Assembly: GCA_017528825.1 (NCBI GenBank)
Contig: JAFXOI010000001.1
Coordinates: 149,411-213,410 of the forward strand
Length of the DNA stretch: 64,000 nucleotides
Direction: 5' to 3'
From: Elusimicrobiaceae bacterium
GTDB taxonomy: Bacteria; Elusimicrobiota; Elusimicrobia; Elusimicrobiales; Elusimicrobiaceae
A program made the position numbers and the translations under genes. Shown here one piece after another: positions 4,244 to 59,932 of this stretch; the first letter of the stretch is position 1, and every line of letters starts with the position of its first letter. A model generated the notes under the pieces. It had not been told where the DNA came from. It was given only the letters and a program-made list of their open reading frames with translations, and searched no databases.

Positions 4244-4280
4244 TATAATAAAAATAGATTTAAGCCCGGTTGGCGCAGGG
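4244..4280 (+). other. Relic promoter plus decayed 5' end of tRNA-Val
   Basis: An extended -10 (TGG then TATAAT at 4244-4249) is followed 15 bases later by sequence matching the first ~17 bases of the tRNA-Val gene at 11286 (one substitution). The promoter-to-tRNA distance is the same 15 bases as at the intact gene. Similarity is lost after GGCGCAGGG. I infer this is the original promoter and 5' end of the tRNA gene, left behind by an earlier integration event. Confidence 0.65.
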
Positions 4281-4372
4281 CTAGTAAAATTAAGTTCGTT
4301 CCCGACAGGGAACCGCGCGCCGAAGTAAAAAGTTACGGTTTATACCGAGCTATGTTTAGTTGTATCAATCGT

Positions 4373-4416
4373 TTTAAGCCCAGTTGGCGCAGGGGTAGCG
4401 CGTTCCCTTGACATGG
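4373..4416. repeat. attL: 44-bp direct repeat (5' half of tRNA-Val)
   Basis: Identical over 44 bp to 11281-11324, running from 5 bases before tRNA position 1 to just past the anticodon GAC. After 4416 the sequence diverges from the tRNA, so this copy is only a tRNA fragment. This is the left attachment junction of element 1. Confidence 0.85.
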
Positions 4417-11280: not shown

Positions 11281-11324
11281 TTTAAGCCCAGTTGGCGCAG
11301 GGGTAGCGCGTTCCCTTGACATGG
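11281..11324. repeat. attR: 44-bp direct repeat within tRNA-Val
   Basis: Identical to 4373-4416. Here the sequence continues into the tRNA 3' half, so this is the junction where the element's 5' half joins the chromosomal 3' half. Confidence 0.85.
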
Positions 11325-11890: not shown

Positions 11891-12955
11891 TTACATATTT
11901 ATGCCATACTGCGTACTTATATTTTGCACTTGTGCCTCTACTTCAGCACAACGAGCTGACGAACAACGATGTTCATTTGGACAGGATGCCCCACCGCAAC
12001 AACATGCGTTATCATTATAACTCACACCTGCACAACCATATCTATAATAAGTAGATTCTCCTGCATAACATACAGAGCCATTCGTAAACGTGCTATCGCA
12101 TCCTCCATAAAAACTTGTAGTGACACAAATTGCATTATCAAAAGTATTATTTGCACAAGAGCTCTCATTTTTTGTGATACATACGGCTCCGTTTGCAAAG
12201 GAAGAATTTGTACAACCCGCTTTTGCCATGTCCCAACATACTCCCCCATCTTTAAATGAGGAATTATTACAAGAATTATAAATATAACCTTTACATATAC
12301 CTCCTTCATTTACCTCGACGTTACTAGATGCTCCATATCCACAAAACGGCGTAGAATTGCCATATATACCATTGGCTTGATAGGGCATAGCTAATGCTGA
12401 ACATCTTTCTTGGTCGGTTCTATAACATGTTCCATTTTTTTGCGAAAAGGCACGGCCAACATGATCACAAGTGGCCTTGTCTATAGCTTGGTCTAAAAGA
12501 TACGCGGTGTAGCCCTCGGCACTAGTTAAATCTTGGCCTATAAGTAGCTTTCCGCAAAGTTTTTCGGCCCGTTCATCGCCTGTCTTAGCCTCACAATGCA
12601 GTTGCCCGGCAAATATTGGACTGTCGTTAAGGTAACTAGCCAGTCTTACATTAGCAAGCTTACTATTCGTAACCCGTATCACGTTGGGATCTGCGGTATT
12701 ATTGGGCGTTACTAAGGCAAAGGTTAAATCAGTATTATTCATAGTAACATCTAAATTAGCCATATTATCTGTATAAGCACCATTAGTCATTTTAATGGCT
12801 TCTTCAGCATCTTTAATGGCCTTAGCTCCGGGGAGCATTGTGCTCCAATGGCTTTTATCCACCGCGCCCTGATACATGGGGATTGCAATAGCTGATAAAA
12901 TACCAATAATCAGTACGACAACTAGCAATTCTACTAACGTAAATGCTTTGTGCAT
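11891..12955 (-). CDS. Type IV prepilin-like protein with Cys-rich repeat tip
   Basis: 354 residues from the ATG at 12955, chosen because AGGA lies correctly before it and the class III signal starts there. MHKA is followed by FTLVELLVVVLIIGILSAIAIP, with Glu at position 5 of the mature helix; a prepilin peptidase would cut before Phe. A pilin globular domain spans ~30-210. From ~235 the chain becomes a tandem array with pattern C-x2/3-[ST]-x-[FY]-x-[ND]-G-x-[VI]-C, repeated about six times. This suggests a disulfide- or beta-stacked tip domain shared with the pilin at 58360. It is preceded by structured leader RNA copy A. Function: pilus subunit or minor pilin; adhesion is inferred. Confidence 0.88.
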   Translation of the reverse strand: MHKAFTLVELLVVVLIIGILSAIAIPMYQGAVDKSHWSTMLPGAKAIKDAEEAIKMTNGAYTDNMANLDVTMNNTDLTFALVTPNNTADPNVIRVTNSKLANVRLASYLNDSPIFAGQLHCEAKTGDERAEKLCGKLLIGQDLTSAEGYTAYLLDQAIDKATCDHVGRAFSQKNGTCYRTDQERCSALAMPYQANGIYGNSTPFCGYGASSNVEVNEGGICKGYIYNSCNNSSFKDGGVCWDMAKAGCTNSSFANGAVCITKNESSCANNTFDNAICVTTSFYGGCDSTFTNGSVCYAGESTYYRYGCAGVSYNDNACCCGGASCPNEHRCSSARCAEVEAQVQNISTQYGINM

Positions 12956-13273
12956 AAGATTTCCTTTAAAATATTGGCCTGGGCAAAAGAAAACGGCTAT
13001 TATGCCCAAGCGCGAATCAGTCACCTAGTCATAACAGCCGTAGTTTGCCGCGCCCGAAGGCGTGGCAAACATTCGGTACAACACAACGGGATTATAAGTT
13101 CCATTGCGTTGTACCTAAAACAGCTGCTTTTGGACTGATTCGTGGCCTTTGGTTTCCCAAAAGCTATCCGTATTCTGCATACGGTTCCAAAAACAGATTA
13201 AAATTTATTCATAAGCGCAGTTTCTTGCGCGTAACTATCTATCCTCCTATAAAGGGATGTTGGTATTATAGCA
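12956..13273 (-). promoter_or_regulatory. Promoter and leader of prepilin gene (contains RNA copy A)
   Basis: An extended -10 (TGC TATAAT, rc of 13265-13273) predicts a start near 13258, giving a ~300-nt leader. Near the 5' end are an AGGAGG and a GCGC-AAGAAACT-GCGC hairpin; the conserved structured RNA then occupies 13196-12989, followed by AAAGGAAATCTT before the ATG. Confidence 0.7.
12989..13196 (-). ncRNA. Structured leader RNA, copy A (riboswitch-like, new class candidate)
   Basis: On the minus strand: CTGTTTTTGG, hairpin 1 (CCGUAU/AUACGG), hairpin 2 capped by GAAA, a free segment GAAUCAGUC, a GGUACAAC/GUUGUACC stem, an 11-bp stem with a UUCG loop (GUUUGCC...GGCAAAC), then UACGGCUGUUAU, GACUGAUUC, and AUAAUAGCCGUUUUC. 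GAAUCAGUC and GACUGAUUC pair over 9 bp. The final ACGGCU/AGCCGU pairing followed by U-residues resembles a terminator. The same order of elements recurs at 26032-26244 and 58119-58328 with compensatory changes. The ligand or trigger is unknown. Confidence 0.75.
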
Positions 13274-25954: not shown

Positions 25955-26291
25955 TGCTAAAATGGAAGTATCACATTAAATTTGCAAAGGAGATAAAACA
26001 GAACAGCCCGAACTGGGCATAAACTTTTTTACTGTTTTTGGGATCCTGCTGGAAGAGTAGGATAGCTATTGGGAAACCAATATCTAAGCTCACCAAAACA
26101 GCCAATTTAAGCATAGACACTGAGAGCTGATCCCTTTCGGTGCTTATGCCGAAAATGCTTCTTGCCGTCTGCAAAGACGGCAAGGGGTTACGGCTGTTTA
26201 TATCCGGGGCTGAGCTTAGACCTGGACGTAATACAGCCGTTTTTATATCCCCAAGCTGTCCGCTTTTCCTTTGGATTCCGCCCATATATTT
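25955..26291 (+). promoter_or_regulatory. Promoter and leader of methylase/helicase operon (RNA copy C)
   Basis: An extended -10 (TGC TAAAAT, 25955-25963) predicts a start near 25970 and a ~320-nt leader. The first 60 nt contain AAAGGAG and an AGCCC-GAACT-GGGCA hairpin; then comes the structured RNA (26032-26244) and a ~45-nt stretch to the ATG, with no strong Shine-Dalgarno. Confidence 0.65.
26032..26244 (+). ncRNA. Structured leader RNA, copy C (upstream of defence operon)
   Basis: Same order of parts as copies A and B: CTGTTTTTGG, hairpin 1 (AUCCUGCU/AGUAGGAU), hairpin 2 UAUUGG-GAAA-CCAAUA, segment CUAAGCUCA, then CCAAAACAGCC, a GCAUA/UAUGC stem, a 10-bp GCAA-capped stem CUUGCCGUCU/AGACGGCAAG, UACGGCUGUUUA, UGAGCUUAG, and ACAGCCGUUUUU. 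CUAAGCUCA pairs with UGAGCUUAG (9 bp). AAACAGCC can pair with GGCUGUUU (8 bp), competing with the 3' ACAGCCGU hairpin that precedes the U-run. The bases differ from A and B but the pairing is kept. Confidence 0.75.
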
Positions 26292-26948
26292 ATGACGGAA
26301 CGAAAGGAACAACAAATCAAAAGCGAGAAACGCGTGGCCGACTTTGGCGAAGTGCTCACCGCACGCCGTGAAGTGGAAGCCATGCTGGACCTGGTCAAAA
26401 ATGAATCGGAACGCATAGACAGCCGCTTCTTGGAGCCCGCATGCGGCACGGGGAACTTCCTTACTGCCATATTGGAACGCAAGCTCAAAACTTTACGGGC
26501 ACGCTACCGCACTAAACGGGCCGACTTTGAAGCCCAACTGCTCTCCGCCTTAGGCAGCATCTACGGCATTGACTTATTAGAAGACAACGTCAAAGAATCC
26601 CGCCAACGCCTTTTTGATATGGCCGTACAGTGCTACAAAGATTCCCTGCGTAAGAAACCCGATGAAGCATTTCAAAACATCATCCGCTTTGTACTAAGTA
26701 AGAACATTCTGCAAGGTGATTCATTAAACGGAATAGACAAAATCACGTTCACCCAGTGGACACTGCTCGGCTACCGATTTAATAGGGAAGAGTACGCTTT
26801 CCAAGCATTAAACAATAAACCGGAAGACGGACTGGACTTGTTCGGCACGTCTTCCTTAAACGAAAAACAGCAACCCGTGTACATTCCGCAAGCTGTTAAA
26901 CGTTACCCGCCTGTACATTACCGCAAATTATTGGAGGAAACTAAATGA
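26292..26948 (+). CDS. N6-adenine-type DNA methylase-like protein, motif I only
   Basis: 218 residues from ATG 26292. Contains VADFGEVLTARREVEAMLD (the target-region lead-in of N6-adenine methylases), the SAM-binding motif I LEPACGTGNFL (47-57) and IYGIDLLEDNV. The catalytic NPPY/F motif IV is not found, and the protein is shorter than a full enzyme. It overlaps the next gene (a full NPPY protein) by 4 bases, so the two are coupled and may form one split or heteromeric methylase. GC- and codon-richer than the recombinase cluster before it. Role in modification inferred. Confidence 0.78.
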   Translation: MTERKEQQIKSEKRVADFGEVLTARREVEAMLDLVKNESERIDSRFLEPACGTGNFLTAILERKLKTLRARYRTKRADFEAQLLSALGSIYGIDLLEDNVKESRQRLFDMAVQCYKDSLRKKPDEAFQNIIRFVLSKNILQGDSLNGIDKITFTQWTLLGYRFNREEYAFQALNNKPEDGLDLFGTSSLNEKQQPVYIPQAVKRYPPVHYRKLLEETK

Positions 26949-28495
26949 CGTTCTTAAAAGAATTGCACAAGCCGGACATTTTGGACTGCATTGCCCACTT
27001 GTCTTCCGACGAAGTATTCACACCACCCAAGCTGGTAAATGAAATGCTGGATATGCTTCCGCCCGAACTGTTCCGAAGTACGGAAACAAAGTTTTTGGAT
27101 CCTGGTTGCAAATCCGGCGTGTTCCTGCGGGAAATTGCCAAACGCTTGATTGAAGGCGAAAAAGAACTCATTCCCGACCTGGAAAAGCGGATCCGGCACA
27201 TCTTTACAAACCAATTGTACGGGCTGGCTATTACGGAGCTGACAGGGCTTTTGGCACGGCGTTCCACTTACTGTTCCAAGAAAGCAGATGGGGAATACTC
27301 CATTTGTACATTTAGCACACCGGACGGCAACATTGACTATACTCGCACGGAACACGTCTGGGAAAACGGCAAATGCACCTTATGCGGGGCCAGCCAAAGC
27401 CAGTACGACCGTGGCGACATTTTAGAAACCCACGCATACAGTTTTATTCACTGCGACGAAGAACACAACAAAACAGTTTTCAAGAGGTTAAAAGATATGA
27501 AATTTGACGTAATTATCGGCAATCCGCCGTATCAACTAAGTGATGGTGGAGCACAAGCAAGTGCCAGCCCGATTTATCAGTTATTTGTAGAACAAGCCAA
27601 ACGACTAAACCCGCGGTATCTAACCATGATTATACCTTCCCGCTGGATGACTGGGGGCAAAGGATTGGATGCTTTCCGAAGCACGATGATTCATGATAAA
27701 CATTTCAAAACATTACACGATTTTGCAGATTCAAATGAGTGTTTCAGAGGGGTAGATATTAAAGGTGGTGTGTGTTATTTCTTGTGGACACGCGATTCTG
27801 AACAAAAGTGCGACATTTACCGACATGATATAAACGGTGTTAGCCATTCAAAACGCTACTTGGTAGAAGAAGGAGATGACATTTTTATCCGGTGTAATCA
27901 ACTTATTCCCATCAAAGATAAAGTCCAAGCCAAACAAGAAGAAAGTTTTATGAGTTTGGTATCAGCCATGAAACCTTATGGACTACGCGGAGATGTATTT
28001 GAACACCCAATCAAATATGACTTGCCAAAAATGGGGTGCAGAAGAATTAAAGACGGATACGAAGTTGTGGGATTATGCCACCTAAGACGAGAATCACGTT
28101 TTATTCCGCCCGATTATCCCATCCCACAACGTAATATGCTCCATGATTATAAAATTTTTATGACACGCAATTATGGATGTGGCGAGATAGGAGAAGTACC
28201 AGCCACGCCAGTCCTGGCCACGCCAGGAATGTTATGCACCGAAACATTCATTCAGATTGGGCCCTTCAAAACCCAAAAGGAAATGGAGAACTGTTTTAGT
28301 TATATTAAAACCAAATTCTTCCGTTGCATGGTAGGTATTAGAAAACAGGACCAAGGAGCTGGAAGGGCTGTTTATAAATATGTGCCAATGCAAGATTTTA
28401 GCGAACCGTGGACGGATGCCAAGTTATACAAAAAGTACGGACTGACGAAGGACGAAATCAACTTTATAGAGTCCATGATTAAGCCGATGGAATAG
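26945..28495 (+). CDS. Eco57I-type DNA methyltransferase
   Basis: 516 residues. Motif I variant FLDPGCKSGVFL (50-61), catalytic DVIIGNPPYQLSDGG with NPPY at 193-196, and the downstream MIIPSRWMTGG segment as in Eco57I/Mmel-type N6-adenine methylases. A CTLCG pair within an inserted region (~144) may bind zinc. The C-terminal ~230 residues likely recognise target DNA (SLVSAMKPYGLRGD onward). Starts within the upstream methylase-like gene (ATGA overlap) and ends 9 bases before the helicase gene. Expected to protect host DNA in a restriction-modification system; sequence specificity unknown. Confidence 0.88.
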   Translation: MTFLKELHKPDILDCIAHLSSDEVFTPPKLVNEMLDMLPPELFRSTETKFLDPGCKSGVFLREIAKRLIEGEKELIPDLEKRIRHIFTNQLYGLAITELTGLLARRSTYCSKKADGEYSICTFSTPDGNIDYTRTEHVWENGKCTLCGASQSQYDRGDILETHAYSFIHCDEEHNKTVFKRLKDMKFDVIIGNPPYQLSDGGAQASASPIYQLFVEQAKRLNPRYLTMIIPSRWMTGGKGLDAFRSTMIHDKHFKTLHDFADSNECFRGVDIKGGVCYFLWTRDSEQKCDIYRHDINGVSHSKRYLVEEGDDIFIRCNQLIPIKDKVQAKQEESFMSLVSAMKPYGLRGDVFEHPIKYDLPKMGCRRIKDGYEVVGLCHLRRESRFIPPDYPIPQRNMLHDYKIFMTRNYGCGEIGEVPATPVLATPGMLCTETFIQIGPFKTQKEMENCFSYIKTKFFRCMVGIRKQDQGAGRAVYKYVPMQDFSEPWTDAKLYKKYGLTKDEINFIESMIKPME

Positions 28496-28504
28496 GAGAA
28501 CCCC

Positions 28505-31030
28505 ATGCCCGAATTATTGAACAGCCACAAGATTCCACAAATATATGTCTATACGGAACCGCAATATAAGACCGCCGACTGGGAAGGCAAACGCAATGGC
28601 CGTGGGTTCCTAAAAATTGGATTCACTACCGGCAATGTAGTGGACCGGATCCGACAACAATTCCCTACCCATAAACCCGTGGATAACCCCTTTGAAGTGC
28701 TATTGGAAGACGTTGCCATCCGCAAAGACGGCACGTTCTTTACTGATAAGGATGTGCACCGCATCCTGCGTAAAAACGGGGCAGAAGAACGCACCACGCA
28801 AGGCAAGCATACAGAATGGTTTGAATGTACGTTGGAAGAGGTGGAACAGGCCATCTTTGCCGTTAAAAACCACAAAACCACTATCACCGAACGCCGGATG
28901 GATTTTGCCATGCGGCCCGAACAAGCCCAAGCGGTCAAAGTTACTAGCGAATACTTCAAAAACTTTTCCTATGAGCGGGAACACAAAACACCGCACTTCC
29001 TGTGGAACGCCAAAATGCGGTTTGGCAAAACATTTACCGCGTACCAATTAGCCAAAGAGATGGGCTGGAAAAAGGTGCTGGTGCTTACATTTAAGCCAGC
29101 GGTGCAAAATTCGTGGGAATCGGATCTAGTCAGCCATGTGGATTTCAAGGACTGGCAATTCGTTTCCCGTACCGGAACACAATATAATGAAATAGATCCC
29201 AAGAAGCCGTTTGTGTGGTTTGCCAGCTTCCAAGACGTACTGCAAAAAACGGATGCGGGCGGTATTAAACCGCGTAATGAAGAGATTCACTGTATAAACT
29301 GGGATTGCATTATACTGGACGAATACCACTTTGGGGCCTGGCGTGAAAACGCAAAGGATCTGTACGATGCCGAAGACAAAGCAGAACAGAAAAAACAAGA
29401 CGGCGACGGCTTGGAATACTACGATGAAGAGCAGATGCCACTAACCACCAGTGCTTATTTGTACCTGTCCGGCACGCCGTTCCGTGCGTTAAACAACGGT
29501 GAGTTTTTAGAAGACCAAATCTTCAACTGGACTTATACCGACGAACAACGCGAGAAAAACAACTGGGATCCCAAACAAGGAGAAAACCCGTACTTGGAGC
29601 TTCCCCAAATGGTGATGATGACCTACCAAATGCCGGAAGAAATACGTTCCATTGCCTTGCTGGGTGAGTATAACGAATTTGACCTGAACGAGTTTTTCAA
29701 AGCAAAAGAAGAAGGTTCCGTGTGTAAATTTGTGCACGAAGCAGAAGTGGCCGACTGGCTAAATTTGATCCGTGGTCAATACAAACCCACCACCTTAGAT
29801 GAACTGAAAATCGGCAAGAAACCGCCGATGCCATATTCCGACGTGCGTTTGCTCAGTGCCCTAAGCCATACATTTTGGTTTTTGCCGTCCGTGGCCAGCT
29901 GCAAAGCAATGGGTACGTTACTAAGCAAGCATCCGGTTTATAAAGAATATAAGGTGATTGTCTGTGCCGGAAATGAAGCCGGAATGGGCGTGGATGCCCT
30001 GGAACCTGTCCGGCGTGCCATCGGCAAAGGGTTTGACACAAAAACGATCACGCTCTCCTGTGGGAAACTTACCACAGGTGTAACAGTGCCGGAATGGGGC
30101 GGGATTTTTATGCTGCGTAATACGTCCAGCCCAGAAACTTATTTTCAATCGGCCTTCCGTGTGCAATCTCCCTGGACGGTTAAAAATCCGGACGGAACGA
30201 ACCCAAATGAAAAAGGTATTGTGAAAGATACCTGTTATGTGTTTGACTTCGCACCGGATCGGGCATTGAGCCAGATTGCCGAATACAGTGCACGCTTAAA
30301 CGCAAACAGTAAGGAATCGCCGGAAAAGCGTGTGGAAGAGTTTATCAACTTCCTGCCCGTGCTCTGTTATGACGGCAGCACTATGGAACTAATCAACGCC
30401 AGCGAGCTGCTGGACTTGGTTATCTCCGGCACGGCATCTTCCATGCTGGCACGGCGTTGGCAAAGTGCCTTACTTGTAAATGTGGACAACCCGACCTTGC
30501 TCAAACTGATGGAAAACGACAAGGCCATGGATGCTTTATCTCGCATTGAAGGGTTCCGTAATTTGAATAAGGACATCACAACGCTAGTGAACAAGTCCGA
30601 AGCACTTAAAAAAGCTAAGCAAGAGAACAAAGAAGAACTTTCAAAGAAAGAAAAGAAGGAACTAACACAAGAAGAAAAAGAAATTAAATCCAAACGAAAA
30701 GAGATACAAGAAAAGCTACTCAAATTCGCAACTAGGATCCCCGTGTTTATGTATTTGACGGACTACCGCGAACAAACCTTGCAAGACGTAATCACCCAGC
30801 TGGAACCGGAACTCTTCCAGAAGGTAACGGGCTTAACAATACCGGACTTTGAACTGCTGGTCAATATAGGCATCTTTAACGAGCAGATCATGAACTCGGC
30901 CGTGTTTGCGTTCCGGCGTTATGAGGAAGCCAGCTTGTCCTATACTGGGCTGACCAAGCACCAAGAACTGCTGATTGGTGGTTTTAACACAAAGATAGAG
31001 CGTACGGAATGGGAAAACATGGGGATGTAA
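28505..31030 (+). CDS. GIY-YIG nuclease-SF2 helicase fusion (restriction subunit candidate)
   Basis: 841 residues. The N-terminal ~120 residues look like a T5orf172/GIY-YIG nuclease (IYVYTEPQ...GFLKIGFTTGNVVDRIRQQ). A superfamily-2 helicase follows: Walker A variant MRFGKT (171-176), DEYH box (272-275), SGTPF motif III (322-326), and a C-terminal RecA domain with GKLTTGVTVPEWGG and ETYFQSAFRVQSPW. A Lys/Glu-rich coiled coil (~700-740) precedes the last domain. AGGAGAA precedes the ATG. With the two upstream methylase genes it forms an operon resembling a type III/ISP-like restriction system in which cleavage is by GIY-YIG. Function inferred. Confidence 0.85.
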   Translation: MPELLNSHKIPQIYVYTEPQYKTADWEGKRNGRGFLKIGFTTGNVVDRIRQQFPTHKPVDNPFEVLLEDVAIRKDGTFFTDKDVHRILRKNGAEERTTQGKHTEWFECTLEEVEQAIFAVKNHKTTITERRMDFAMRPEQAQAVKVTSEYFKNFSYEREHKTPHFLWNAKMRFGKTFTAYQLAKEMGWKKVLVLTFKPAVQNSWESDLVSHVDFKDWQFVSRTGTQYNEIDPKKPFVWFASFQDVLQKTDAGGIKPRNEEIHCINWDCIILDEYHFGAWRENAKDLYDAEDKAEQKKQDGDGLEYYDEEQMPLTTSAYLYLSGTPFRALNNGEFLEDQIFNWTYTDEQREKNNWDPKQGENPYLELPQMVMMTYQMPEEIRSIALLGEYNEFDLNEFFKAKEEGSVCKFVHEAEVADWLNLIRGQYKPTTLDELKIGKKPPMPYSDVRLLSALSHTFWFLPSVASCKAMGTLLSKHPVYKEYKVIVCAGNEAGMGVDALEPVRRAIGKGFDTKTITLSCGKLTTGVTVPEWGGIFMLRNTSSPETYFQSAFRVQSPWTVKNPDGTNPNEKGIVKDTCYVFDFAPDRALSQIAEYSARLNANSKESPEKRVEEFINFLPVLCYDGSTMELINASELLDLVISGTASSMLARRWQSALLVNVDNPTLLKLMENDKAMDALSRIEGFRNLNKDITTLVNKSEALKKAKQENKEELSKKEKKELTQEEKEIKSKRKEIQEKLLKFATRIPVFMYLTDYREQTLQDVITQLEPELFQKVTGLTIPDFELLVNIGIFNEQIMNSAVFAFRRYEEASLSYTGLTKHQELLIGGFNTKIERTEWENMGM

Positions 31031-57296: not shown

Positions 57297-57992
57297 TTAT
57301 TTGGCGACCGGTTTTTTATGATTAGCTTTTACATCATGGGTAGCGGACTGCAAGGCCGTCAATTGTTCGGTCTGTGCCTTGTCGTAAGCGTCCTGCATAT
57401 CTTTCAAATAATAACTCACCGTGTCATCAATTTGCCGGGTAGCATTCTTTTTCAAAGCACGAAGTTCGGCCTTCAGATCTTTGACTTTTTGTTTTAACTG
57501 AGCCACCTGTTCTTTCTTTTGTTCCGACGACAAATCAGTCGATTTTTTAGTTTCTTTAATTCGTTTTTTATAGAATGTTACTTGTAAATTTCTGACATCT
57601 AATGTGTTTTGATAAATGGACTGCACCACCGGCAATAAACTCTCTCTGGTAGTTTGATCGAGCGCTTCTAAATTGCTACCGGATACCTTTTGCAGTGTTC
57701 TGCCTTCAAAATAAGCATAACGAATGGTGTATAACTGCAACGAATTATCAAAATTTTTAGCCAGTGCAATTAATTCTGCCTGATTTTCCTCTGTATTGGG
57801 CATCGAAACAGAGGTAACCAACTCCTGAAGGATTTTTCCGTAGGAGTCATTCTGGGTGGCTTTTTCTAGGGCGGAAGGATTATATTGGGCAAATGCCGCC
57901 AAGACATCTTCTTGTCCTAAATTTTGTTTTCCCTGCACCCAGCCGGCAGAAAGCAAAAAAGAAACAGCTATAAACATCCATTTTTTATGCAT
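57297..57992 (-). CDS. Exported helical protein of unknown function
   Basis: 231 residues. Signal peptide 1-21 (WMFIAVSFLLSAGWVQG). The mature protein is all-helical, with a coiled coil at ~150-190 (SEQKKEQVAQLKQKVKDLKAEL) and a basic C-terminus. No Cys and no recognised family. AGGAGAGG precedes the ATG. Divergent from structured RNA copy B. Confidence 0.65.
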   Translation of the reverse strand: MHKKWMFIAVSFLLSAGWVQGKQNLGQEDVLAAFAQYNPSALEKATQNDSYGKILQELVTSVSMPNTEENQAELIALAKNFDNSLQLYTIRYAYFEGRTLQKVSGSNLEALDQTTRESLLPVVQSIYQNTLDVRNLQVTFYKKRIKETKKSTDLSSEQKKEQVAQLKQKVKDLKAELRALKKNATRQIDDTVSYYLKDMQDAYDKAQTEQLTALQSATHDVKANHKKPVAK

Positions 57993-58078
57993 ATTTATCC
58001 TCTCCTGTAAGGTTATATTCTTATTTTGCTATTTATTGTAAAAAAGGTCAAGTAAAATTTAAAATTAAGAAAAGAATT

Positions 58079-58359
58079 TGTTATACTAGAAGAGTAGTAG
58101 CGCAGTATACAATTTATTCTGTTTTTGGAACCGTGTGCAGAACACGGGGTATTATCTGTAAAGATAATCCAACGCTAATCCAAAAACAGCCGATATTAGG
58201 CACATAATAAAGGGCCTTATAACCCCTTTGTTGTGTGCCGAGTGTTTGCCACCCCTTTGGGAGTGGCAAACCACGGCTGTTTATGATGTAAGACCTTAGC
58301 GTTGGCTTACAGATAAACAGCCGTTTTTGTTGGGTTTCATAAACAGAAAAGGAGAAATT
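58079..58359 (+). promoter_or_regulatory. Promoter and leader of second Cys-repeat prepilin (RNA copy B)
   Basis: An extended -10 (TGT TATACT, 58079-58087) predicts a start near 58094 and a ~265-nt leader carrying the structured RNA; AAAAGGAGAAAT precedes the ATG. Confidence 0.7.
58119..58328 (+). ncRNA. Structured leader RNA, copy B (riboswitch-like, clearest copy)
   Basis: Elements in order: CTGTTTTTGG; hairpin 1 CCGUGU-GCAGA-ACACGG; hairpin 2 AUUAUCU-GUAA-AGAUAAU; CCAACGCUAA; AAACAGCC; stem GGCACA/UGUGCC with an internal arm; stem GUUUGCCAC/GUGGCAAAC; ACGGCUGUUUAU; hairpin UGUAAG/CUUACA exposing UUAGCGUUGG in its loop; AUAAACAGCCGU and UUUUU. CCAACGCUAA pairs with UUAGCGUUGG over 10 bp (pseudoknot). 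ACGGCUGUUUAU pairs perfectly with AUAAACAGCCGU (12 bp) before the U-run (terminator), or GGCUGUUU pairs with the upstream AAACAGCC (anti-terminator). Confidence 0.8.
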
Positions 58360-59391
58360 ATGAAACACAACCAACAAGCATTTACGCTAGTAGAGTTGTT
58401 AGTAGTGGTACTGATTATAGGGATCTTAAGTGCTGTAGCAGTGCCTATGTATCAAGGAGCAATTGATAAAAGCCGCTGGAGCACTTTACTGACCCCGGCC
58501 AAAGCACTACAAACTGCCCAAACTGCCGCCTATATGGAAAACGGAGCATACGCAGAGGATACCAGTGCTTTAGTTTTGTCTTTACCTGGAGAAGCGCAAG
58601 ATAATAAATATATTATGCCGGATGCCGAGTATAGCATAGACACCAAAAGTGCCAACCAAAGTACCATTACCGGGCAATTAGATACGCTGCCGAATGTAAG
58701 ACTTTCTATGGCACTTAAAAATCCGGAAAGTTATTTATTTTGTGAAGCCAAAAGCGGAGATGCACGCGCAGAACGCTTGTGTAAAAATTTACTAGCCGGA
58801 CAAAAGGCAGGCAGTAAAAACGGCTATGATAAATATATCCTAGATTATCCGGGTACGTGTGCGTGGGCCAATACGACGGGGCAATGTTATGTGAGCGAAG
58901 AAGCCCGCTGCAGTGCCATGGGTATGCCATATGCAAATGGATATTGTGGCTATACTGAGGAACAACGGAGAGATATTAATGAAGGTGGGATATGTACGGG
59001 CACTGTAGAACAAGGATGTGCACGTTCGGTTATAAACGAGGGAGGACTTTGCAAGGGGGATGGGCATAATGCATGTGGTTGGTCCACGTTCAATCTAGGC
59101 GGTAAATGTACAGGTACCGTATACGGTGGTTGTAATTTTTCAGTTTTTAATGCAGGAGAATGTAATGGAAACTCTACATCGGGCGCCGCTTGTATTTATA
59201 ATACATTTAATGAAGGAGCAATTTGTAATGGTAATGTAGGAGGAAATTGCAACTCCAATACTTTTAATGGTGGAAAATGTATTGCAAACAACTCGAATAC
59301 ATGTTGGGGAAGTACTTACACCAACGGCGGTTGTTGCGAAGATTACGGAAAAGGATATTGCCCGGCAGACGCCCCCAAGTGCTCGGACTAA
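58360..59391 (+). CDS. Type IV prepilin-like protein with Cys-rich repeat tip (second copy)
   Basis: 343 residues from the ATG at 58360. MKHNQQA precedes FTLVELLVVVLIIGILSAVAVP (prepilin peptidase site, Glu5). The pilin head (~35-190) is similar to that of 11891-12955 (MYQGAIDKSRWSTLL versus MYQGAVDKSHWSTML). From ~215 the protein is a Cys-repeat array (GGICTGTVEQGC, GGLCKGDGHNAC, GGKCTGTVYGGC, GAICNGNVGGNC and more), about eight turns of 15-17 residues. It follows structured RNA copy B and is followed by a terminator. Likely a regulated adhesive or structural pilin. Confidence 0.88.
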   Translation: MKHNQQAFTLVELLVVVLIIGILSAVAVPMYQGAIDKSRWSTLLTPAKALQTAQTAAYMENGAYAEDTSALVLSLPGEAQDNKYIMPDAEYSIDTKSANQSTITGQLDTLPNVRLSMALKNPESYLFCEAKSGDARAERLCKNLLAGQKAGSKNGYDKYILDYPGTCAWANTTGQCYVSEEARCSAMGMPYANGYCGYTEEQRRDINEGGICTGTVEQGCARSVINEGGLCKGDGHNACGWSTFNLGGKCTGTVYGGCNFSVFNAGECNGNSTSGAACIYNTFNEGAICNGNVGGNCNSNTFNGGKCIANNSNTCWGSTYTNGGCCEDYGKGYCPADAPKCSD

Positions 59392-59412
59392 TATCCCATG
59401 CGTCTTTATATC

Positions 59413-59441
59413 AAAATACCCGCTTTGAAAGCGGGTATTTT
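59413..59441 (+). terminator. Terminator after prepilin gene
   Basis: A 13-14 bp stem AAAATACCCGCTTT/AAAGCGGGTATTTT with a minimal loop, 22 bases after the stop; symmetrical, so it can serve both strands. Confidence 0.88.
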
Positions 59442-59461
59442 GTCAGATAAGGAAATTTCGA

Positions 59462-59932
59462 TTAACGAGCAGCTGTGCGAAAGAAATTACCTCGAGTGTT
59501 ACGCGCCAAACGAGGCATTCCTGTCATTTTGTTGGCCTGTATGAGCACTTCCTTGGTATTAGGTTGCACCGTAGTTTCAGCGGCGCCGAAAATATCACCT
59601 TCTTTGATGACACCTAATTTGCCATGGCTATTGATTTGCACTTCTAATTTCAAGTCGCCTTCTACCGTAGAAGCCAGCAAATCATCTTCTCCCAGTTCAA
59701 AAGCAAGCGGAAATTTAGGGTTGACCACTCGTTTAATAGCCACCGGCACATCCGCTTCATTTTTCACAATGATGGCGCAGGAATTGTTATCTGCTTCCGC
59801 TACGCTTGCCAATCGTTCCGGTACAGTAATTGTACCGCTAATGGCAAAACGAGCCGGACGCACTTGTCGATGCACACACATCCAACATATCGCCAAACTA
59901 ATTGCTACTACTACTAATACTAATTTCTTCAT
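59462..59932 (-). CDS. Membrane-anchored protein resembling the CcmI/NrfG C-terminal domain
   Basis: 156 residues. An N-terminal signal anchor (LVLVVVAISLAICWMCV) and a beta-sandwich-like domain. The segments ISGTITVPERLA, NNSCAIIVKNEADVPVAIKRV and GDLKLEVQIN match the C-terminal domain of c-type cytochrome biogenesis factors of the CcmI/CycH type, here without TPR repeats. No other cytochrome-maturation gene is nearby, so function is open. It lies 14 bases downstream of the SH3-domain gene on the same strand. Confidence 0.6.
   Translation of the reverse strand: MKKLVLVVVAISLAICWMCVHRQVRPARFAISGTITVPERLASVAEADNNSCAIIVKNEADVPVAIKRVVNPKFPLAFELGEDDLLASTVEGDLKLEVQINSHGKLGVIKEGDIFGAAETTVQPNTKEVLIQANKMTGMPRLARNTRGNFFRTAAR

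What the first reader, a model, noticed from the sequence alone, without database searches (positions are those of the whole stretch)
58094..58359. Candidate new riboswitch-like attenuator upstream of a Cys-repeat prepilin (copy B, reference copy)
Seen: an ~210-nt leader with four hairpins, one GNRA-capped, a 10-bp pseudoknot (CCAACGCUAA with UUAGCGUUGG in a hairpin loop), and a perfect 12-bp terminator stem (ACGGCUGUUUAU/AUAAACAGCCGU) before UUUUU. An upstream AAACAGCC can pair with the same GGCUGUUU strand, giving mutually exclusive folds. The same layout occurs in two other leaders in this window with different bases but kept pairing. Known: c-di-GMP riboswitches often precede pilin genes, but the GEMM consensus is not present. 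Inference: a new cis-regulatory RNA class that switches transcription of surface and defence genes.
Basis: partly seen in the sequence, partly recalled or inferred. Interest (0 to 1): 0.95.

Follow-up and report, generated by a model that had tools for sequence, protein, structure and literature searches.

The report
Twin-fold RNA switch before pilin genes
A 210-base RNA leader that occurs 45 to 47 times in this one genome, mostly in front of pilus-protein genes, and in 95 of 340 genomes of its phylum, carries two mutually exclusive sets of base pairing kept by matching base changes, and is predicted to decide whether transcription runs on into each surface gene or stops.

Summary
Copy B (58119-58328) is one of 47 strong model matches in the genome; homologues occur in 95 of 340 genomes of the phylum. 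No Rfam 15 family except tRNA reaches gathering score. In 65 copies 94.3% of 3784 cells pair and 51 of 60 pairs show two-sided changes.

It is better read as the outer half of a nested antiterminator, continuous with P1-3':terminator-5' pairing (501 of 520 cells). Computed path: P1, then antiterminator once J' is made (96 of 96); P1 plus terminator at full length in 91 of 99. So it is most likely a transcription attenuator.

Downstream are prepilins (38 of 44 own copies), glycosyltransferases, outer-membrane proteins and restriction-modification genes. The input is unknown.

Unexpected: the P4 loop carries a self-complementary tetranucleotide in 88 of 96 loops, in seven versions (shuffled mean 9), suggesting leader-leader kissing. 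Termination, switching and dimerisation are untested.

The parts
58078..58087 (+). Promoter-like extended -10 (TTGTTATACT) upstream of copy B
   Evidence: Sequence; -10-like sites upstream in 33 of 44 own copies, base-shuffled mean 5.6
58119..58128 (+). P1 5' strand CTGTTTTTGG
   Evidence: helix 1 paired in 96.6% of cells in 65 sequences
58131..58147 (+). P2 hairpin CCGTGT-GCAGA-ACACGG
   Evidence: all 6 pairs with two-sided changes
58150..58168 (+). P3 hairpin, GUAA (GNRA) loop
   Evidence: all 6 modelled pairs with two-sided changes
58169..58178 (+). J strand CCAACGCTAA, complementary to J' (outer half of antiterminator)
58180..58192 (+). P1 3' strand CCAAAAACAG plus CCG; competes between P1 and the antiterminator
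   Evidence: Antiterminator pairing 501 of 520 cells, slid controls 15-56%
58199..58239 (+). P4 hairpin; apical loop with the self-complementary core TATA
58244..58271 (+). P5 hairpin
   Evidence: all 8 modelled pairs with two-sided changes
58273..58324 (+). Intrinsic terminator hairpin (5' arm 58273-58284, 3' arm 58313-58324), J' at 58296-58305 in its loop, U-tract follows
58360..59391 (+). Downstream gene: Cys-repeat type IV prepilin, 343 aa
   Evidence: Pfam N_methyl 33.5 bits, cut-off 21.2
12993..13196 (-). Copy A of the leader (P1 to terminator)
   Evidence: R1 hit 188.6 bits (L040)
11891..12955 (-). Prepilin gene after copy A, 354 aa
   Evidence: Pfam N_methyl 25.5 bits, cut-off 21.2
26032..26244 (+). 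Copy C of the leader (divergent)
   Evidence: R1 hit 103.2 bits (L102)
26271..31030 (+). Restriction-modification operon after copy C: methyltransferase pieces (26271-26948, MmeI_Mtase just under its cut-off; 26945-28495, Eco57I) and a T5orf172/ResIII protein (28505-31030)
   Evidence: Pfam

Best explanation
This is a family of 5' leader RNA, absent from Rfam 15, whose sequence keeps two mutually exclusive pairings, a terminator and an antiterminator, through paired base changes, and it most likely works as a transcription attenuator that sets read-through into the surface gene behind it. In the terminator fold P1 encloses P2 and P3, and the terminator hairpin forms before a U-tract. In the antiterminator fold the P1 3' strand (CCAAAAACAGYCG) leaves P1 and pairs with the terminator 5' arm (CGGCTGTT), and the 10-nt J strand just before it pairs with J' just after that arm. 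Together they make one long nested helix around P4 and P5, so the '10-bp pseudoknot' is the outer half of the antiterminator. The folding energies predict this order during transcription: P1 first, then the antiterminator when J' emerges, then P1 and the terminator if the full length can re-equilibrate. Whether RNA polymerase has escaped by then would decide the output. Shown by sequence or computation: both pairings, their conservation, the order of predicted stabilities and the gene classes. Inferred: that termination happens and that it is regulated. Unknown: the input; a protein, a ligand or another leader RNA could tip the balance by holding P1 or by blocking J or J'.
For: Terminator fold: 94.3% of 3784 cells paired, 51 of 60 pairs with two-sided changes, covariation score 0.557 against 0.207 in shuffles (0 of 500 as high) and 0.07-0.11 when slid, 65 sequences. 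J:J': Watson-Crick run of at least 7 in 96 of 99 copies, 2.0% of 9702 mixed pairs. Antiterminator: 501 of 520 cells, slid controls 15-56%; an unbroken run of at least 7 in 90 of 99; copies with changed strands keep it (L097, L098, L099, L104, second L114 copy). The first bases after P1 (YCG) are unpaired in the terminator fold but conserved as partners of the terminator arm. Stabilities: truncated RNA prefers J:J' in 94 of 94, full length prefers P1 in 89 of 94. Ensembles: P1 formed early in 96 of 96, J:J' when J' is just made in 96 of 96, P1 at full length in 88 of 96; P1 and terminator both above 0.5 at full length in 91 of 99. With J' swapped from another copy J:J' forms in 8 of 96. Targets: prepilin in 38 of 44 own copies.
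Against: No transcript or termination data exist here. Energies are nearest-neighbour predictions without tertiary contacts or kinetics. A true pseudoknot in the terminator fold would leave the same covariation, so the data do not exclude it. In the J'-swap control P1 stays above 0.5 in only 30 of 96, so the antiterminator arm alone often displaces P1 and J:J' is not its only driver. At full length 8 of 96 copies still favour J:J'. The antiterminator run is under 7 in 9 of 99 copies (L074, L080, L100, L112, L113, L116, L119, L126, L127), and most of its columns vary little, so it has few two-sided changes. Alignment A4 was fitted to the terminator fold, which inflates counts for that fold (not for J:J' or the antiterminator). 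The outermost P1 pair is lost in 18 of 63 sequences. Three of 99 copies lack a J:J' run of 7 (L061, L090, second L114 copy). Copies are related, so counts are not independent events.
Confidence: 0.8

Rival explanations
1. A classical small-molecule riboswitch: a ligand binds the P1-P2-P3 junction, holds P1 and causes termination (for example a cyclic dinucleotide, since the genome encodes three GGDEF domains).
For: The architecture (P1 3' strand shared with an antiterminator) is that of many riboswitch expression platforms (recalled). c-di-GMP riboswitches do precede pilin genes, e.g. pilA1 of C. difficile (PMC6200980, passages read). Three GGDEF matches in the genome.
Against: No match to any Rfam riboswitch. 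P2, P3 and J vary in sequence; at 80% over all 65 rows the conserved unpaired bases of this domain are two As after P1, two As of the P2 loop and one A in J. The targets are diverse surface and restriction-modification genes, not one pathway.
Confidence: 0.2
2. A leader switch worked in trans by other leader RNAs: P4 loops with self-complementary cores pair two transcripts, and terminated leaders act as small RNAs on nascent ones.
For: T plus a self-complementary tetranucleotide in 88 of 96 P4 loops (loop-shuffled mean 9.0, maximum 18 in 500) and in 21 of 27 distinct loop sequences (shuffled mean 2.6, maximum 8 in 2000). Seven of the sixteen possible kinds, five of them in both families; three short P4 hairpins carry GACG instead, a loop known to form kissing homodimers in Moloney viruses (PMC7357161, PMC516450, passages read). 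The same tetranucleotide occurs in another loop or joint of the same RNA in only 2 of 89 (label-shuffled mean 6.0).
Against: No evidence that two leaders meet; A+U-only cores would kiss weakly. Three copies have the non-palindromic CGCT and one ATTCAT; three have no P4. The pattern was noticed first and tested afterwards.
Confidence: 0.25
3. A protein antiterminator binds the common hairpins.
For: Many RNAs of one layout before many genes would suit one regulator; hairpins P2, P4 and P5 are common to nearly all copies.
Against: One NusG match and no paralogue in a genome 95% complete; no CAT RNA-binding domain, with controls ringing in 4 of 14 genomes. The ANTAR search was uninformative because its controls did not ring.
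Confidence: 0.2
4. A DNA element (MITE-like repeat or recombination site) that only looks like an RNA because it is full of inverted repeats.
For: Patchy distribution, copy numbers from 0 to about 45, accessory genes behind it, short inverted ends CTGTTTTTGG/CCAAAAACAG; some J words shared by unrelated loci.
Against: It stands before genes on the same strand, with promoter-like sites upstream and the chosen start codon usually 30-100 bases behind; a U-tract terminator in nearly every copy; the two pairings exclude each other, which matters only for a single strand made 5' to 3'; no blastn match of copy B in 50,697 phage or 72,556 plasmid records. Target-site duplications were not looked for.
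Confidence: 0.05

Closest known systems
c-di-GMP-I (GEMM) and c-di-GMP-II riboswitches
   Same: Leader RNAs before type IV pilin and other surface genes; transcription read-through control (PMC6200980, passages)
   Different: No Rfam match, different helices, no evident conserved ligand core; switching helix includes a copy-specific 10-nt pairing
Riboswitch-type attenuators with an anti-antiterminator P1 (S-box, lysine; recalled)
   Same: P1 3' strand shared between P1 and an antiterminator that uses the terminator 5' arm
   Different: The antiterminator encloses two extra hairpins and is closed by a J:J' helix whose sequence differs between the copies of one genome; no known ligand
Cobalamin riboswitch kissing-loop platform (recalled)
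   Same: A strand of the upstream domain is complementary to the loop of the regulatory hairpin
   Different: Here the pairing is nested with an antiterminator and predicted to oppose the terminator
Palindromic kissing-loop RNAs (retroviral dimer sites, guanidine-II riboswitch)
   Same: Self-complementary hairpin loops; GACG loops in three copies (PMC7357161, PMC516450, passages)
   Different: In a family of bacterial attenuators with seven alternative loop cores; dimerisation untested

Membership tests
Intrinsic-terminator transcription attenuator | G+C-containing stem followed by a U-tract between promoter and gene | tested here: met
   helix 6 paired in 96.3% of cells
Intrinsic-terminator transcription attenuator | Mutually exclusive antiterminator conserved by covariation | tested here: met
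   J:J' strongly; P1-3':terminator-5' mostly by conserved pairing, few two-sided changes; energies
Intrinsic-terminator transcription attenuator | Regulated termination observed | not testable with these tools
   No transcript data
c-di-GMP-I / c-di-GMP-II riboswitch (Rfam) | Match to the family covariance model | tested here: not met
   No match at gathering score in the window or in 15 further loci; none among the five E<=5 hits for the leader
Any Rfam 15 family | Score at or above gathering cut-off | tested here: not met
   Only tRNAs found
LoaP/RfaH-type (NusG paralogue) antitermination | NusG paralogue in the genome | tested here: not met
   One NusG match in G000; genome 95% complete
BglG/SacY-type antitermination | CAT RNA-binding protein | tested here: not met
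   0 in G000, controls ring in 4 of 14
ANTAR antitermination | ANTAR protein | tested here: inconclusive
   0 in G000 but 0 of 14 controls rang
Small-molecule riboswitch | Conserved unpaired binding core in the aptamer | tested here: inconclusive
   Few conserved unpaired bases outside switching strands, joints and P4 loop
Kissing-loop homodimer RNA | Self-complementary apical loop kept through sequence change | tested here: met
   88 of 96 loops, seven cores; loop-shuffled mean 9.0
Kissing-loop homodimer RNA | Dimer observed | not testable with these tools
   Needs native gel or ultracentrifugation

The most novel reading that the evidence does not exclude
A self-addressing RNA code for dozens of surface genes. 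Each leader carries a private 10-nt latch word (J:J') that decides terminator or antiterminator, and a P4 hairpin whose loop is one of about seven self-complementary 'dimer keys', so that leader RNAs of the same key pair with each other. Expression of some forty-five pilin and surface genes in one cell would then be coordinated, or made exclusive, by leader-leader pairing without any regulatory protein or DNA inversion.
Probability: 0.2. Interest if true: 0.93.

Novelty: new variant of a known kind. Interest (0 to 1): 0.8.

Why it matters
It adds a large, well-supported RNA family in a phylum for which the held papers show no such RNA: searches with Elusimicrobi plus pilin and riboswitch (0 papers), type IV pili and pilE (2), noncoding RNA (7), Elusimicrobium minutum with pilin (4), judged by their listings; of the 329 papers of a looser search only 12 were listed. 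It makes a concrete question testable: how a 1.5-Mb genome with 113 prepilin-type motifs chooses which pilins to make. The gene classes behind the leader (pilins, glycosyltransferases, outer-membrane proteins, DNA methyltransferases) are those that other bacteria often put under phase variation (recalled), so an RNA route to the same end would be of general interest.

Tried and rejected
Rejected: GEMM or another Rfam class; phage or plasmid origin (none of the 18 viral-contig pattern stretches held a full-strength model match, best E 1e-4); NusG-paralogue and BglG-type control. A hairpin between the terminator right arm and the bases after the U-tract looked striking in single copies (L043, 14 bp) but did not hold overall: run of 8 or more in 6 of 99 against 3.0% of mixed pairs. 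A longest-complement test of P1-5' against the post-terminator bases was weak because the null is high with G-U allowed; the stricter motif test was positive.

J words: I expected pure drift and found exact sharing between species. Of 63 words (of 64 non-own places; one G067 place left out; orientation judged by eye) 5 match one of 44 own words exactly and 1 is one base off; column-shuffled means 0.03 and 0.83, at most 4 exact-or-one-off in 300 shuffles. One match is at a syntenic locus (G030/G032 against own C5); for the other four no flanking gene was shared at over 45% identity and 60% coverage in the stretches compared, one of which is only 3.3 kb. Eight like-word pairs have masked element identity at percentiles 45-95 of all pairs (the reference pairs were not masked). 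Recombination, convergence or a trans partner are all possible; I leave it unexplained.

Rows dropped before counts: one search was given 100 of 104 available loci (L115, L130, L131, L132 left out, cap 100) and of its 104 matches 5 were dropped (two antisense, one contig-end partial, two duplicates through L124), leaving 99. Of the 47 own matches, 44 are in the 99: the two contig-end ones (identical 130 bases) and C41:48755 (L028, seen: prepilin, J:J' of 11) are not. One search lists 25 further rows at E 4e-7 to 0.01, most of them antisense or partial matches at the same places; one at another place (L101) was fetched but not analysed. The 29 same-family loci are best matches, so biased to strong copies. 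Genome tallies scored only 7 candidates a genome and are lower bounds.

Full report
What is there. Reading 57500-59500 confirms every element of the finding; coordinates are in the parts list. The leader lies between a promoter-like site (TTGTTATACT, 58078-58087) and a 343-aa prepilin (58360-59391; Pfam N_methyl). It folds at -106.1 kcal/mol, z -9.0 against 200 dinucleotide shuffles. The other two copies in the window are A (minus strand, 13196-12993, before a second Cys-repeat prepilin) and C (plus strand, 26032-26244, before a restriction-modification operon with an Eco57I methylase and a T5orf172/ResIII protein).

How many. A sequence pattern finds 28 places in the 1.53-Mb genome, with 0 in the reversed control. 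A covariance model (R1, 26 copies, 60 pairs) finds 47 at E below 1e-8, two of them contig ends with the same 130 bases, and 25 weaker rows, most of them antisense or partial at the same places. In the phylum R1 finds 93 of 340 genomes in 6 of 100 genera, and a model from 65 diverse copies (R2) finds 95 of 340 in 9 of 100 genera. Of those 95, 81 are in one family (f1), 13 in f21, related only at phylum level, and one weak hit (E 8e-7) in f2. The weak single hits in G077, G126 and G293 were not inspected. Copy number is uneven: about 45 here and 33 places by pattern in G067, but 0 to 5 pattern matches (both strands together) in the other 29 genus members searched; 22 and 25 model matches in two f21 genomes. 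In the collection of 84,980 species genomes a strict pattern gives one hit, an Elusimicrobiaceae genome from horse faeces (L148); records near the window's own genome may be left out there. That the window is from Elusimicrobiota is inferred from this hit and from the finding text.

Not a known family. No Rfam 15 family except tRNA reaches its gathering score in the window or in 15 further loci; for the leader alone the best hit is RsaE at E 0.52, 20 bits against a cut-off of 79. Blastn of copy B finds nothing in phage and plasmid records.

Two pairings, both conserved. On 65 sequences the terminator fold pairs in 94.3% of 3784 cells; 51 of 60 pairs show changes on both sides (the alignment is model-fitted, which favours this fold). 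On the MAFFT alignment of 26 own copies, made before any model (the structure was then drawn on it), 93.7% of cells pair, with 32 of 60 pairs changed on both sides. The J:J' pairing, which neither the alignment nor the model knows of, has a Watson-Crick run of at least 7 in 96 of 99 copies (own 43 of 44, same family 28 of 29, f21 25 of 26) and in 2.0% of 9702 mixed pairs. No two of the 44 own J words are the same (smallest distance 2), so this is covariation of the strongest kind. The antiterminator helix AACAGYCG:CGGCTGTT pairs in 501 of 520 cells; slid versions give 15-56%. An unbroken run of at least 7 is present in 90 of 99 copies; in 9 it is 4 to 6. It is largely invariant, but copies with altered strands keep it: L098 CAGTCGC:GCGACTG, L104 AATAG:CTATT, L114 (second copy) AAATAGTCATG:TATGGCTATTT, L099 AATGGTCGCT:GGCGATTATT. 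The outermost P1 pair is lost in 18 of 63 sequences, f21 ones by the rows, while the same G still pairs in the antiterminator in 61 of 65.

Why the 'pseudoknot' is more likely half of the antiterminator. J lies directly 5' of the P1 3' strand and J' lies just 3' of the terminator 5' arm. J:J' is therefore nested outside the antiterminator helix and continues it around P4 and P5; it is a pseudoknot only if the terminator forms at the same time. Forced-fold energies: with the transcript ending just after J', the J:J' fold is lower than the P1 fold in 94 of 94 copies (means differ by about 10 kcal/mol); with the whole terminator made, the P1 fold is lower in 89 of 94. Unforced ensembles say the same: P1 is formed in 96 of 96 before the terminator arm is made, J:J' in 96 of 96 (P1 in none) when J' is made, and P1 again in 88 of 96 at full length; P1 and terminator are both above 0.5 at full length in 91 of all 99. 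With J' taken from another copy J:J' forms in 8 of 96; but P1 then stays in only 30 of 96, so the antiterminator arm has pull of its own. When 60 further bases are added the two folds come within about 2 kcal/mol on average and the J:J' fold is lower in 39 of 94. A strand like CCAARRACA, able to pair with the freed P1 5' strand, follows the terminator in 23 of 99 copies (13 of 44, 4 of 29, 6 of 26) against base-shuffled means of 0.35, 0.17 and 0.18.

What it stands before. In this genome 38 of 44 copies precede a prepilin (37 by motif; L049 by eye, where the same copy is L018). The rest, named from sequence and from the unassigned Pfam table: a lipoprotein, a DUF4422 protein, two HAD-type proteins, the restriction-modification operon and one unclear. 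In the same-family loci 13 of 29 are prepilins, in f21 3 of 26. Pfam on 33 chosen proteins of the 96 listed, all but one of them non-pilin, finds glycosyltransferase 8 (3), outer-membrane beta-barrels (3), HAD_2 (2), EcoRI methylase, N6_N4 methylase, DUF4422, polysaccharide pyruvyl transferase, sulfatase and a Chlamydia-type polymorphic membrane protein. The theme is the cell surface plus DNA methylation. The genome holds 113 prepilin-type N-terminal motifs, so the leaders mark about a third of them.

The P4 loop. Of 99 copies, 88 carry T followed by a self-complementary tetranucleotide in the P4 loop: AATT 36, GATC 28, TATA 11, CATG 6, AGCT 3, TCGA 2, TGCA 2. One more has GATC after C. Exceptions: CGCT 3, ATTCAT 1, no P4 3, and three short P4 hairpins of this genome with a GACG tetraloop. 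AATT, GATC, TATA, CATG and AGCT occur in both families; TCGA and TGCA only in f1. The pattern was noticed first and tested after: among 96 loops 88 have it against a loop-shuffled mean of 9.0 (maximum 18 of 500 shuffles); among the 27 distinct loops 21 have it against 2.6 (maximum 8 of 2000). A hairpin loop cannot pair such a core with itself inside one molecule, and the same core recurs in another loop or joint of the same RNA in only 2 of 89 (label-shuffled mean 6.0). Change between palindromes is what one expects if two copies of the same RNA pair by this loop. GACG loops form a homodimer through two base pairs in Moloney viruses, and palindromic two-nucleotide loops pair in the guanidine-II riboswitch (PMC7357161, PMC516450: passages read). 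This is suggestive, not shown.

The input. One NusG and no paralogue, no CAT-type antiterminator, an uninformative ANTAR search and three GGDEF matches. Few unpaired bases of the P1-P2-P3 domain are conserved, which speaks against but does not exclude a ligand pocket.

Literature. No paper in the held library has Elusimicrobi, pilin and riboswitch together; the papers listed for Elusimicrobi with noncoding RNA (7), with type IV pili and pilE (2) and for Elusimicrobium minutum with pilin (4) are not on this topic by title and abstract; a human-microbiome RNA catalogue has no mention of Elusimicro or pilin in its main text (PMC8040213, term search). Preprints and supplementary tables were not searched.

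Judgement. The RNA family and its two pairings are about as sure as sequence alone allows. Attenuation is the best reading; the direction of regulation and the input are open. I call it a new variant of a known kind because attenuators are well known, while the copy-specific latch, the palindromic P4 keys and the scale of use before pilin genes are not known to me in any described class (recalled knowledge).

Noticed in passing
P4 loop, window 58215-58224 and 98 other copies: T plus a self-complementary tetranucleotide in 88 of 96 loops, seven kinds; GACG tetraloop in three short P4 hairpins.
   Followed up: partly
J words, e.g. own L037, L038, L046, L056, L093 and G036, G052, G030/G032, G037, G067: Exact latch words shared between species, mostly at unlike loci, above a column-shuffled null (5 of 63 against 0.03); rest of the elements mostly not alike.
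   Followed up: partly
Whole genome G000: 113 prepilin N-methylation motifs in 1.53 Mb.
   Followed up: no
window 4373-4416 and 4259-4302: The first repeats, without a mismatch over 44 bases, a stretch that includes the 5' half of the tRNA-Val gene at 11286; the second is a degenerate copy (61%).
   Followed up: no
after the terminator, in 23 of 99 copies (e.g. L035, L037, L047): A strand like CCAARRACA that could pair with the freed P1 5' strand; in copy B only a short piece, AAACAGA, is seen.
   Followed up: partly
G000:C15:1-130 and G000:C16:1-130: Two contigs end in the same 130 bases of a leader copy, as if assembly broke in the repeat.
   Followed up: no
f21 genomes (G311-G321): Up to 25 model matches a genome, before glycosyltransferases, lipoproteins and methyltransferases among others; 3 of 26 examined stand before prepilins.
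   Followed up: partly
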